Assembly: GCF_002072955.1 (NCBI RefSeq)
Contig: NZ_LPUF01000003.1
Location: 124,001-188,000, forward strand
Direction: 5' to 3'
Length of the DNA stretch: 64,000 nt
Origin: Methyloprofundus sedimenti
Lineage (GTDB): Bacteria > Pseudomonadota > Gammaproteobacteria > Methylococcales > Methylomonadaceae
The notes under the pieces are model-generated. The model saw nothing but the letters and a program-made list of their open reading frames with translations. It did no database searches and had not been told where the DNA came from. This document shows, piece by piece, positions 2,722-56,056 of this stretch (the first letter of the stretch is position 1; the number at the start of each line of letters is the position of its first letter). The position numbers were made by a program, and so were the translations under genes.

Positions 2722-3057
2722 ATGAGCGATACTGTATATACTGGAAAATTACGTCAATGGAATAAAGATAAAGGCTTTGGTCTTATCGGGCAAGCCAAAG
2801 GCAAGCCTGATATTTTTATTCATGCATCAGAATTAAAAGGCTTAAGTCGTAAACCAAAGGTCGGTGATGCTATTTCTTATCAAGTTATCACCTCAGAAAA
2901 TGGGAGAACTCAGGCAATAAATGGGTATATTAAAGGTGTCAGTGCTGCTCAAGTTGTTGTTAACAGGCAGAGTAACAGTATTCAAAGATTTGTTACATTT
3001 ATAGCCATATTTGTTGCTATTGTGATCCTTGTTAATATTGTTAAATACTTTATATAA
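2722..3057 (+). CDS. Cold-shock-domain protein with C-terminal membrane helix
   Basis: The first 70 residues form a CSD: a WNKDKGFGLI strand in place of the usual WFNxxKGFGFI RNP1 region, followed by DIFIHASEL (RNP2-like). The last 25 residues form one hydrophobic helix, as in Csp-DUF1294-type proteins, but here the membrane part is a single helix rather than the full DUF1294 domain. It probably binds single-stranded nucleic acid while anchored to the inner membrane. An in-frame start at 2665 exists; the ATG at 2722 begins directly at the conserved domain and is preferred. Confidence 0.75.
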   Translation: MSDTVYTGKLRQWNKDKGFGLIGQAKGKPDIFIHASELKGLSRKPKVGDAISYQVITSENGRTQAINGYIKGVSAAQVVVNRQSNSIQRFVTFIAIFVAIVILVNIVKYFI

Positions 3058-3058
3058 C

Positions 3059-3395
3059 CTATTGCCGTCGTTGCAACACCCTATAAACACTAGTCACCCC
3101 GATACCCATTACTAATTACCCTCAACTCTCAGCCACAGTGGAATAAAGAACTAAATATCAGTATGTTAAAAACATCGTCATTCCCGAAGTCTTATATCGG
3201 GAATCTATGCTTAACCTACTAGATTCCTGATAGAAATATGCAGGAATGGCGAATTATAGCTGAGAGTTATGGGTAATCAGCTACCCATTTGATCCGCAAC
3301 CGCTTGCCTGGTTAAGCCCTGCCCTAACAATTCATGTATCTGGCGGTTTGCTCCCTTTATACTTCCCTTCTGCCTTTGCTTTAATAAAAGGGGGC
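3059..3395 (-). pseudogene. Tn3-type serine resolvase, C-terminal remnant split by a MITE
   Basis: Read on the minus strand, 3395-3290 encodes KQRQKGSIKGANRQ, then HELLGQGLTRQAVADQMG, a resolvase linker and helix-turn-helix. The frame is cut at 3281 by a 171-bp insertion and resumes at about 3110-3060 with MGIGVTSVYRVLQRRQ and a stop. Removing the insertion and one copy of the 8-bp duplication joins the halves in frame as ADQMGIGVTSVYRVL, the expected end of a Tn3-family resolvase. The catalytic N-terminal domain is not present here. The fragment is too short and broken to appear as an ordinary ORF. Confidence 0.8.
3103..3289. mobile_element. MITE copy A1 (about 171 bp) with 8-bp target duplication
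   Basis: The element spans 3111-3281. TACCCATT occurs immediately outside both ends (3103-3110 and 3282-3289). The ends are imperfect inverted repeats of about 25 bp: left ACTAATTACCCTCAACTCTC, right (reverse complement) GCTGATTACCCATAACTCTC. The interior has the hairpin CGTCATTCCCGA...TCGGGAAT and a GGAATG-type arm. It carries no gene. It interrupts a resolvase remnant whose frame is restored by its precise removal, which shows that it moved as a discrete unit. Confidence 0.88.
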
Positions 3396-17219: not shown

Positions 17220-18882
17220 ATTTACTGGAAACTTCTCATTATCCACGGGAAAATATTAAAAAGTTGCTTTACAATATATTCTATGAACTCGCCTAAACCT
17301 GAATTACCAGAGATAAACAAAGAAGATCGCACACCGCTAGTCGATGTGTTATTGGAAATGCTTGCCTGGCAACAAAAGCAGATTGATGAGTTAGCACAAG
17401 AGATACTCAAGCTTAAAGGTGAAACCACAAAGCCTAAAATCAAACCGAGTACAATGGATAAGGAGGGTGCCCCAGGAAGTGATGACTCCTCATCAAAAAG
17501 GAAAAAAGGCCCAAGGCGCAGTAAAAAAGGCAACCTCAAAATAGATGAAACCCAAATTATTCAGCCGGATGAAATCCCGGAGGGTTTACGCTTTAAAGGG
17601 TATCAGGATCGTGTTATTCAGGATATTACCTTTCAAACTCATAACATTCGTTATCGTTTAGCAGAATATATAACGCCAGAGGGTCTTACGATTTTAGGTC
17701 AGCTTCCCGAAGACATTCAGGGAGGTAGCTTTGGTAAAAGCCTTATTGCCTTTATTCTCTATCAATACCATCACCAACATGTCACACAGCCATTACTACT
17801 GGAACAAATTCGTGATTTAGGCGTCGATATTTCGAGCGGTAAGCTCAGTTATATACTAACAGAAGATCTGGACGATTTTCATGCCGAAAAAGATGAATTA
17901 CTGAAGACGGGATTATCCGTTTCTAAATATATTCATACAGATGATACTGGCGCACGGCATAAAGGGCAAAATGGCTATTGCACACATATTGGCAATGATT
18001 TTTTTGCCTGGTTCAGTAGTACAGAAAGTAAAAGCAGAATCAATTTTTTAAACTGTCTATCACAAGGCAAAACAACGCTTTATACATTGAACACAGGTGC
18101 CATTGAATACATGGCACAAAATAAGCTGTCTGTTGTAATCTTGGCGACACTGGAAAATATCAGTGTCTGCATTAACACGGCACCTGACTGGTGCGAATGG
18201 CTGGATCAGCAAGGCATCGTTAAACCTCGGCACAGAAAAATAGTCACGGAAGGTGCTTTGATGGGAGGGCTGCTAGACCAAGGCATTTCCTCTGACTTTT
18301 CAATTATCAGTGATGATGCAGGGCAGTTTAACGTCTTTGATCATGCCTTGTGCTGGATCCATGCCGAACGAGTAATTAATCGCCTGATTCCTTTAAATGA
18401 CAGCCATACCAAGGCAGTCGATGACGCACGCGACTAGCTTTGGTCGATTTACCATGACCTGAAAGCTTATAAACTTAATCCTGTTACCGAACAGGCGAGC
18501 AGTATCAGGCAGCGCTTTCAAATCCTATGCAGCACCAAAACCTGTTACGAAACGCTTAACCAGGCTCTCGGGCGCATGGGGAAAAATCAACATGAACTCC
18601 TCCGTGTACTCGACAAACCCTACCTCCCACTTCATAACAATTTAAGCGAACGGGATATAAGGGATTACGTCAAGAAACGAAAAATCAGCGGGAGTACACG
18701 AAGTGATGCAGGGCGGAAAGCCCGTGATACTTTTGCCAGTCTCAAGAAGACCTGCCGAAAGCACGGCATGTCATTTTGGGGTTATTTAAAAAGTCGCTTA
18801 CTGAAGTTAGAAGGGATTCCTCCGTTATCGGAAGTCATTCGTGCGGCCGCTGCCAGTGTATAATGAGAAGTTACATTTACTG
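17220..18882 (+). mobile_element. IS66-family insertion sequence, single-gene type, with 8-bp duplication
   Basis: The element runs 17228-18874 (about 1.65 kb). ATTTACTG lies directly outside both ends (17220-17227 and 18875-18882), the 8-bp duplication expected for IS66. The ends are inverted repeats: left GAAACTTCTCATTATCCAC, right (reverse complement) GTAACTTCTCATTATACAC; the right end has the GTAA terminus common in IS66. It carries only the large transposase gene, without the small accessory genes, as in the ISBst12-like subgroup. Confidence 0.88.
17283..18863 (+). pseudogene. IS66-family transposase interrupted by an in-frame TAG
   Basis: The start ATG at 17283 gives MNSPKPELPEINKED with an N-terminal coiled coil (EMLAWQQKQIDELAQEILKL), a basic linker, and the DDE domain (IHTDDTGARHKGQNGYCTH; SDDAGQFNVFDHALCWIHAE). 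A TAG at 18435-18437 interrupts the frame after DDARD. The same frame continues LWSIYHDLKAYKLNP through the third catalytic block (NNLSERDIRDYVKKRKISG) to the stop at 18863. One point change, such as CAG to TAG, would explain it. A longer frame from 17136 begins outside the element and is not the gene. Confidence 0.85.
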
Positions 18883-46418: not shown

Positions 46419-46437
46419 GTAACTTCTCATTACCCAC
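46419..46437. repeat. Solitary IS66-type terminal repeat
   Basis: GTAACTTCTCATTACCCAC matches the end of the IS66 element at 17228-18874 (GTAACTTCTCATTATACAC and GAAACTTCTCATTATCCAC) almost completely. No partner end or transposase is next to it; the long palindrome starts four bases away. Confidence 0.7.
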
Positions 46438-46440
46438 AGA

Positions 46441-46615
46441 TATTTAGGAGCGAGAATTCAATAATACCCGAGTCTGACTTGTCTTTTGACTTCACAGGCG
46501 TGCTAGAAAACCAGTTGCGTAGCCTGCTATGCGCCTGTTTTCCTAGCACGCCTGTGATGCCAAAATCCTACGTCATACTTTCGGGTATTATTAAACCCTC
46601 GCTCCTTAGCAATAA
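46441..46615. repeat. Long imperfect palindrome (about 170 bp)
   Basis: AGGAGCGAG plus AATAATACCCGA (46446-46471) are matched by TCGGGTATTATT plus CTCGCTCCT (46581-46606). CACAGGCGTGCTAG (46493-46506) is matched by CTAGCACGCCTGTG (46543-46556). The centre is near 46523. Transcribed RNA would form one long hairpin. The short frames across it are artefacts. Confidence 0.8.
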
Positions 46616-46621
46616 ATAATC

Positions 46622-46697
46622 CGTCTTTCCTGCACGCTGTTAGCAGGAATCCAGGTTGACACAATAGATCCCCGATACAAGACTTCGGGGATGACGA
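46622..46697. repeat. Family A-related hairpin repeat (A4)
   Basis: CGTCTTTCCTGC ... AGCAGGAATCC ... AGATCCCCGATACAAGACTT then CGGGGATGACG has the interior blocks of the MITE family in inverted order. Terminal repeats and target duplication are not recognisable. Confidence 0.5.
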
Positions 46698-46752
46698 TCT
46701 CTCCTACATCGAGATAACTGATCTGTAATATCAGGTAATCCTGGGGAAATAA

Positions 46753-55870: not shown

Positions 55871-56056
55871 TAAGTTTACCAGATTACGTACAAAACTCGG
55901 CTATTCCAAATATGGCTTTAAGTACCAGCAAGTTAAAGAATACGTCATTCCCGAAATCTTTTATCGGGAATCTGTGCTTAATTTAGGAGATTCCTGCTAA
56001 AAGCATACAGGAATGACGGAGTATAGCTGAGAGTTATGGGGAATCAGGTAAGTTTA
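55871..56056. mobile_element. MITE copy A2 (170 bp) with 8-bp target duplication
   Basis: The element is 55879-56048. TAAGTTTA lies directly outside both ends (55871-55878 and 56049-56056). Left end CCAGATTACGTACAAAACTC, right end (reverse complement) CCTGATTCCCCATAACTCTC. The interior carries CGTCATTCCCGAAATC and GGAATGACGGAGTATAGCTG. Length and structure match copy A1. Confidence 0.85.

What the first reader, a model, noticed from the sequence alone, without database searches (positions are those of the whole stretch)
3103..3289. A roughly 170-bp MITE family with 8-bp target duplications
Copies A1 (3111-3281) and A2 (55879-56048) have the same length and same imperfect terminal repeats, and each is flanked by its own 8-bp duplication (TACCCATT; TAAGTTTA). 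They encode nothing and must be moved in trans. Two independent duplications make a chance explanation unlikely. The autonomous partner is not in the window; an 8-bp duplication would suit an IS66- or Tn3-unrelated DDE element, which is not settled.
Basis: seen in the sequence. Interest (0 to 1): 0.75.

Follow-up and report, generated by a model that had tools for sequence, protein, structure and literature searches.

The report
IS1595-driven MITEs carrying a shared palindrome
Two short DNA elements in a methane-eating bacterium's genome are miniature jumping genes that borrow the enzyme of a known transposon family (IS1595), and their inner palindrome also turns up inside miniature jumping genes of other, unrelated transposon families, which suggests how a class of bacterial repeats with no known mover may spread.

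Summary
In detail: A1 (3111-3281) and A2 (55879-56048) have the stated ends and perfect 8-bp duplications. I found 40 copies with both ends in this genome; in 29 the flanks match at 7 or 8 of 8 positions, against 18 of 1560 mispaired flanks. A2 has an orthologous empty site in a relative; two other copies have a paralogous one.

The missing partner is an IS1595-family transposon: decayed copies with the same ends in this genus, and full-length 1028-1030-bp copies in other gammaproteobacteria, one with a 339-aa open frame and an 8-bp duplication.

Unexpected is the interior: a head-to-head dimer of CGTC-type REP palindromes. Related dimers occur inside MITEs with other ends: IS66-type (8-bp duplication), IS630-like (3-bp) and others. 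Of 117 core copies from three genomes, 88 lie between both ends of one of six shells (4% at random places). CGTC REPs are described as lacking a dedicated transposase (PMC3733652); hitch-hiking inside MITEs would explain their spread here. An IS1595-derived MITE itself is not new (PMC3852290). How cores pass between shells is inferred.

The parts
3103..3110 (.). A1 left target duplication TACCCATT
3111..3281 (+). MITE copy A1, IS1595-type ends, 171 bp
3111..3133 (+). A1 left terminal inverted repeat (ACTAATTACCCTCAACTCTCAGC)
3176..3252 (+). A1 core: CGTC-type REP head-to-head dimer (imperfect palindrome; z -5.2 as RNA)
3259..3281 (-). A1 right terminal inverted repeat (reads GCTGATTACCCATAACTCTCAGC on the minus strand)
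3282..3289 (.). A1 right target duplication TACCCATT
55871..55878 (.). A2 left target duplication TAAGTTTA; a single copy stands at the orthologous empty site in relative G001
55879..56048 (+). MITE copy A2, 170 bp
55943..56018 (+). A2 core: CGTC-type REP head-to-head dimer (z -6.4 as RNA)
56049..56056 (.). A2 right target duplication TAAGTTTA

Best explanation
A1 and A2 are non-autonomous derivatives (MITEs) of an IS1595-family insertion sequence. SHOWN by sequence: the family shares the IS's ends (CCTGATTAC..., often with the same GT-left / CC-right asymmetry as one full-length IS, L096), sits between 8-bp duplications of A/T-rich targets (consensus WAANNTTW), codes for nothing and has empty sites. 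INFERRED: an IS1595 transposase (zinc-ribbon plus DDE) bound the ends and moved them in trans; in this strain the probe found only fragments and broken copies of that transposase, so the family may be inactive here now. SHOWN: the interior is a head-to-head dimer of CGTC-type REP palindromes, and closely related dimers lie inside MITEs with IS66-type ends, IS630-like ends and further kinds of ends, flanked by their own 8-bp or 3-bp duplications. INFERRED: the dimer is a cargo cassette that spreads by riding in MITE shells driven by several unrelated DDE transposases, and passes between shells by nested insertion followed by recombination within the palindromes.
For: Partner: a transposase 3' end of this family runs straight into the MITE's right end in G000 (PF12762 4e-11); left end followed by an IS1595 transposase in same-genus G009; right ends in G006 and G001. 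Full-length elements elsewhere: L098 1030 bp, identical 23-bp ends, duplication AAGCATTT twice, 339-aa open frame (PF12762 1.8e-35, PF12760 2.1e-16, NF033547 3.9e-66); L101 1028 bp, TACTTCTT twice; L096 1028 bp with GT-left/CC-right ends and a full domain match but no duplication. Duplications 29 of 40 vs 18 of 1560 mispaired in G000. Empty sites. Core in other shells: 88 of 117 copies in G000, G009 and G013 lie between both ends of one of six shells vs 123 of 3000 random places. Duplications at 7-8 of 8 in 28 of 40 core-bearing IS1595-shell copies of the three genomes (46 of 1560 mispaired) and 12 of 15 IS66-type copies (0 of 210 mispaired); 3-bp exact in 18 of 27 IS630-like copies (225 of 702 mispaired; 0 of 20000 permutations as good). 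Partners: IS66 element with the same ends (526 aa, PF03050); IS630-like 1155-bp element in G009 (HTH_33 6.3e-13, DDE_3 1.9e-26). Three of 117 core copies join half of one shell to half of another, switching within the core.
Against: No intact IS1595 transposase was found in this genome, though the probe was only 74 aa of its C-terminus. L096, L112 and L113 have the ends but no clear duplication. 11 of 40 own copies lack a duplication at 7-8 of 8 by script. The six-shell test passes 4% of random places, 114 of 123 through the short IS1595 motif, and one G009 copy counted as IS1595 (L206) has a doubtful left end. The core copies come from a similarity search that scored 40 candidates per genome of 45, 71 and 49, so they are those most like the A1 core and not a census. 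The three hybrids are all from G013, a fragmented draft with 7% contamination, where misassembly at repeats is possible, and the right half of L217 is assigned on only 40 bp. Partners of three of the six shells were not found, and the two shell-5 copies show no clear duplication. Covariation in the core hairpins is weak.
Confidence: 0.87

Rival explanations
1. The core is an independently mobile REP dimer (REPIN-like) moved by a REP-associated tyrosine transposase (RAYT), which happens to insert into or next to MITEs.
For: The core looks like a REP dimer; the genome has 30 matches to the RAYT domain PF01797, 27 of them over the cut-off.
Against: In 20 of the 30 RAYT loci (those with sequence in hand, about 1.5 kb each side) an exact-word search found one CGTCATTCC, 1.4 kb away, and none beside the gene; degenerate cores could be missed. 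88 of 117 core copies lie inside complete MITE shells, against 4% of random places, which untargeted REP insertion would not give. PMC3733652 also found no RAYT flanked by CGTC repeats (passages).
Confidence: 0.12
2. A1/A2 belong to one ordinary MITE lineage that formed once by internal deletion of an IS1595 element; the core is its own interior, and cores in other shells were taken from it by illegitimate recombination now and then, with no general cassette behaviour.
For: In this genome 31 of 39 core copies are in the IS1595 shell; nested insertions and hybrids exist.
Against: In G009 the IS630-like shell carries more cores (16) than the IS1595 shell (8), and in G013 the IS66 and IS630-like shells dominate (12 and 11). 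The IS1595 shell also carries a different palindrome (GTAG-type, 5 of 40 copies by motif), so shells and cores combine both ways.
Confidence: 0.2
3. The IS66-family element found inside a MITE copy is the autonomous partner.
For: It lies between MITE halves at L073 4035-5860, and IS66 elements also make 8-bp duplications.
Against: It has its own ends (GTAACTTCTCATTATCCAC) and its own duplication TATCGTCA inside the MITE. Of 15 pairs of such ends 1647-1648 bp apart in the genome, only this one lies between MITE ends, judged by comparing the coordinates.
Confidence: 0.02

Closest known systems
MITE of ISHwa6 (IS1595 family) in Haloquadratum walsbyi, Table 4 of PMC3852290 (passages seen)
   Same: 165 bp, 25-bp inverted repeats, 8-bp duplications, attributed to an IS1595-family element
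   Different: Archaeal, 7 copies; no shared REP core reported in the passages I saw; sequence not compared here
CGTC-type REP dimers (PMC3733652; outline, passages and sections seen), including Neisseria dRS3 and Rickettsia RPE-4/6
   Same: CGTC tag outside, 8-bp stem starting A-T, 3-nt tail, mostly head-to-head dimers, some with unequal stems; no associated transposase
   Different: Loop here is 9 nt in A1 instead of 4-5; here 88 of 117 copies examined lie inside inverted-repeat shells, mostly with target duplications. The paper reports a parallel, Halothiobacillus neapolitanus, whose CGTC-1 dimers all lie in 41-bp palindromes, and names no IS for it in the passages I saw
IS1595 family, e.g. 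ISApl4 (PMC12561309; passages seen)
   Same: A/T-rich 8-bp duplications, one transposase gene
   Different: ISApl4 is 712 bp with GGGG ends; the elements here are 1028-1030 bp with CCTGATTA ends
BOX elements of Streptococcus pneumoniae (PMC3049150; search listing seen only, modular structure recalled)
   Same: Small repeats of modular build
   Different: Modules within one family, not one core in shells of several IS families (recalled)

Membership tests
MITE of the IS1595 family | Short, non-coding, terminal inverted repeats | tested here: met
   171 and 170 bp, no ORF of 100 aa over either; 22-nt ends, 86% complementary in A1
MITE of the IS1595 family | Target duplication of the family's length (8 bp), A/T-rich | tested here: met
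   29 of 40 at 7-8 of 8, 18 of 1560 mispaired; consensus WAANNTTW
MITE of the IS1595 family | Ends shared with an autonomous IS1595 element | tested here: met
   L086 left end, L060/L087/L088/L094 right ends; full-length elements L098, L096, L101
MITE of the IS1595 family | Mobilised in trans by that transposase | not testable with these tools
   needs a bench assay
MITE of the IS1595 family | Empty sites | tested here: met
   A2: G001 has a single TAAGTTTA; L014/L022: L061 has a single AAACATTA. Not shown for A1
CGTC REP head-to-head dimer (core) | CGTC outside, about 8-bp stems starting A-T, 3-nt tail, inverted pair | tested here: met
   CGTC-ATTCCCGA...TCGGGAAT-CTA and its inverted, unequal partner (definition in PMC3733652)
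CGTC REP head-to-head dimer (core) | Loop of 4-5 nt | tested here: not met
   9 nt in A1, so a variant; PMC3733652 section 6 also lists some families with other loops
REPIN moved by a RAYT | RAYT gene flanked by the same repeat | tested here: not met
   20 of 30 RAYT-domain loci examined by exact word, none with the core beside the gene
IS66-type MITE (second shell) | Ends of an IS66 element and 8-bp duplication | tested here: met
   12 of 15 copies at 7-8 of 8, 0 of 210 mispaired; same end words as the IS66 element of L073

The most novel reading that the evidence does not exclude
CGTC-type REP dimers are a transferable cassette without a mover of its own: they live inside MITE shells of several unrelated transposon families (IS1595, IS66, IS630-like and others), are copied by whichever transposase recognises the shell, and pass from shell to shell by nested insertion and recombination within the palindromes. 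This would answer how these repeats spread without a dedicated transposase, perhaps beyond this genus.
Probability: 0.55. Interest if true: 0.75.

Novelty: new variant of a known kind. Interest (0 to 1): 0.6.

Why it matters
The MITE family itself is an ordinary new member of a known kind. [quoted passage not shown] Here an answer can be read from flanking duplications: three unrelated DDE transposase families appear to carry closely related palindromes. That makes a question about a widespread class of bacterial repeats testable in a laboratory assay.

Tried and rejected
IS66 as the partner: rejected. Unpaired ends as borders of autonomous elements in this genome: one was the 3' end of a broken IS1595 element, the others I looked at were decayed or half copies, a nested IS or a second sub-family with a GTAG-type core. 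RAYT as the mover of the core: no support. RNAalifold on a MAFFT alignment of cores gave a poor structure because gaps spread; a gap-free count on 85 of 117 cores (65 distinct) gave only weak covariation: the two local hairpins reach or just pass the best shuffles in paired cells, the long-range pairing does not exceed shuffles; yet the predicted fold of A1 and A2 is the long-range hairpin. A scan of 26 loci from other organisms for CGTC dimers found none, but these loci hold only about 3-5 kb each. Empty site of A1: not found; relatives' hits cover the upstream gene and stop before the element, and I looked no further. Literature: 10 searches; none listed a paper that I recognised as reporting REP dimers shared between MITE families, but the library lacks most subscription journals. 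Papers: PMC3733652 outline, passages, section 6 and part 1 of section 17; PMC3852290, PMC12561309 and PMC4853749 passages; all others search listings only. The family name IS630 for HTH_33 plus DDE_3, and the usual duplication of that family (TA, which the 3-bp TWA here does not quite fit), are recalled.

Full report
The observation. A1 is 3111-3281 between two copies of TACCCATT; A2 is 55879-56048 between two copies of TAAGTTTA. The window is G000 contig 3, 124001-188000, of a 4.29-Mb genome in six contigs. A search with A1 plus its duplications gave 47 matches in that genome, and the 22-bp end with up to 3 mismatches gave 84 hits against none for the reversed control. After deduplication I have 40 copies with both ends within 420 bp; 29 have flanks matching at 7 or 8 of 8 positions (18 at all 8), against 18 of 1560 mispaired flank pairs. 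The 40 include two mispairings of neighbouring ends (L005 1415-1673, L026 1500-1729), counted as misses; two other misses (L024, L028) show full duplications when the end is placed by eye on the sequences. Target consensus is WAANNTTW.

Empty sites. At the A2 site the same-genus genome G001 keeps one TAAGTTTA with homologous sequence on both sides and no insert; the region also aligns in G006 and G016 without a MITE, but there the target itself has changed. Copies L014 and L022 lie at the same site of a dispersed host repeat, and L061 holds that repeat uninterrupted with a single AAACATTA. By eye, a family A copy also sits inside a family B copy (L075). For A1 no empty site was shown.

The organism. 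Names come only from loci of genome contigs. Locus L088 of same-genus genome G001 is 100% identical over 2995 bp to L111, from the Bathymodiolus japonicus methanotrophic gill symbiont, so the window is most likely from a methanotrophic gammaproteobacterium of the genus of that symbiont.

The partner. One unpaired MITE end in G000 (C1:224211) is also the 3' end of a transposase fragment, PF12762 (DDE_Tnp_IS1595) E 4e-11, cut by an unrelated insertion. The six matches to this 74-aa fragment in G000 are fragments or have stops or frame breaks. In G009 the element begins with CCTGATTACGTAGAACCCTCAGC and runs into an IS1595 transposase with an in-frame stop and a frameshift; no right end was found there. 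G006 and G001 keep the right end. In other organisms 26 loci were found. Among these L098 (Methylococcales bacterium) is full length: 1030 bp, identical 23-bp ends, AAGCATTT on both sides, a 339-aa open frame with both IS1595 Pfam domains and NF033547 at 3.9e-66. L101 (Methylococcaceae bacterium, 1028 bp) has TACTTCTT on both sides but a shorter open frame (268 aa). L096 (Gammaproteobacteria bacterium, 1028 bp) has both Pfam domains and the same GT-left, CC-right asymmetry as many MITE copies, but no matching duplication; L112 and L113 have similar ends and no clear duplication. In 19 of the other 21 loci I did not establish both ends; L102 and L107 show similar ends. MITE and IS share little beyond the ends (matches of 12-34 bp), as PMC3852290 reports for other MITEs.

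A false lead. In L073 a 526-aa IS66-family transposase (PF03050 7.2e-19; below the NCBIfam cut-off, 132.8 against 180 bits) lies between two halves of a MITE. Its own ends and the duplication TATCGTCA show that it inserted into the MITE. Fifteen pairs of these ends, this one included, lie 1647-1648 bp apart in G000; another is at 17228-18874 of the window with ATTTACTG on both sides.

The core. Inside A1 and A2 is a palindrome of 76-77 bp that folds far better than shuffles (z -5.2 with 1 of 200 shuffles as good, and -6.4 with none). It consists of two inverted, unequal palindromes, each tagged CGTC outside: CGTC-ATTCCCGA-loop-TCGGGAAT-CTA and its partner; the predicted fold pairs them into one long hairpin. 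That is the description of a CGTC-type REP head-to-head heterodimer, which may fold either way (PMC3733652), apart from a longer loop. The paper states that CGTC repeats are not associated with transposase genes and leaves their movement open.

One core, several shells. Aligning core copies with their flanks showed related cores between quite different ends. One search listed 41, 41 and 42 matches in G000, G013 and G009 after scoring 40 candidates per genome of 45, 71 and 49. I fetched these places (three in G013 were left out: C207, C112, C135), re-searched all loci in hand by blastn and deduplicated, which gave 39 + 39 + 39 = 117 copies. 88 of 117 have both ends of one of six shells: G000 31 IS1595 and 1 IS66; G009 8 IS1595, 1 IS66, 16 IS630-like, 2 shell 4; G013 2 IS1595, 12 IS66, 11 IS630-like, 1 shell 4, 2 shell 5, 1 shell 6. 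At 3000 random window places 123 pass, 114 of them through the short IS1595 motif; one G009 copy counted as IS1595 (L206) has a doubtful left end. Of the other 29, 26 have at least one end word, which is weak evidence because half of random places do too (1558 of 3000). Three had none (L160, L213, and L145 at 1499).

Duplications by shell. IS1595 shell with the core, three genomes: 28 of 40 at 7-8 of 8 (46 of 1560 mispaired). IS66-type: 12 of 15 (0 of 210). Shell 4: 3 of 3 at 7 of 8 (0 of 6). Shell 6: 1 of 1 at 8 of 8. IS630-like: exact 3-bp TWA-type duplication in 18 of 27, against 225 of 702 mispaired and 0 of 20000 permutations as good. The two shell-5 copies show no clear duplication. The IS630-like shell has an autonomous relative in G009 (L249, 1155 bp, reading frames matching HTH_33 6.3e-13 and DDE_3 1.9e-26). 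Partners of shells 4, 5 and 6 were not identified; the GTAAC ends and 8-bp duplication of shell 6 resemble IS66.

One shell, several cores. The IS1595 shell also carries a GTAG-type palindrome (5 of 40 copies by motif, and L078 by eye). A module of about 26 bp (ACCCAGTCAAGCGTGGGCACAAGCTT) sits in the loop of one or the other hairpin in IS1595, IS630-like, shell 4 and shell 5 elements.

How cores may pass between shells. Three of the 117 copies, all from G013, join the left half of one shell to the right half of another, switching within the core: L167 (shell 5 to IS630-like), L183 (IS630-like to IS1595), L217 (IS630-like to IS66, the right half resting on 40 bp). L183 continues after the IS1595 end into what looks like the rest of the IS630-like shell, as nested insertion followed by recombination between two cores would leave it. 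This is inference, and G013 is a fragmented draft with 7% contamination. RAYTs are an alternative mover: 30 PF01797 matches exist, but none of the 20 loci examined has the core word beside the gene.

Verdict. A1 and A2 are IS1595-family MITEs: a new member of a known kind, since an IS1595 MITE of 165 bp with 8-bp duplications is listed for Haloquadratum walsbyi (PMC3852290). The core shared between shells of unrelated transposon families is the new variant and carries most of the interest.

Noticed in passing
window 17228-18874: IS66-family element, 1647 bp between ends, ATTTACTG duplicated on both sides; one of 15 such end pairs in the genome; the frame listed stops at 18437, short of the element's end.
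   Followed up: partly
window 46419-46740: IS66-type left end followed by another inverted-repeat element (AGGAGCGAG...CTCGCTCCT) and a degenerate CGTC core (46627-46698): apparently nested miniature elements.
   Followed up: partly
L014 1506-1673, L022 1506-1697, L061 about 519: Two MITE copies of different length lie at the same base of the same dispersed host repeat, in the same orientation: a hot spot, or the repeat was copied after insertion. L002 has the same target word in unrelated flanks.
   Followed up: partly
L021, L022, L024-L026, L028, L171, L195, L207, L244-L247: A module of about 26 bp (ACCCAGTCAAGCGTGGGCACAAGCTT) in the loop of either core hairpin, in several shells; origin unknown.
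   Followed up: no
G000, 30 places (L224-L243 and others): Many RAYT-like (PF01797) genes; of the 20 loci scanned, one (L241) has GTAG-type repeats close by.
   Followed up: partly
G000 C1:618000-628000 (L073): Three MITE copies within about 7 kb, one of them interrupted by the IS66 element: a local cluster.
   Followed up: no
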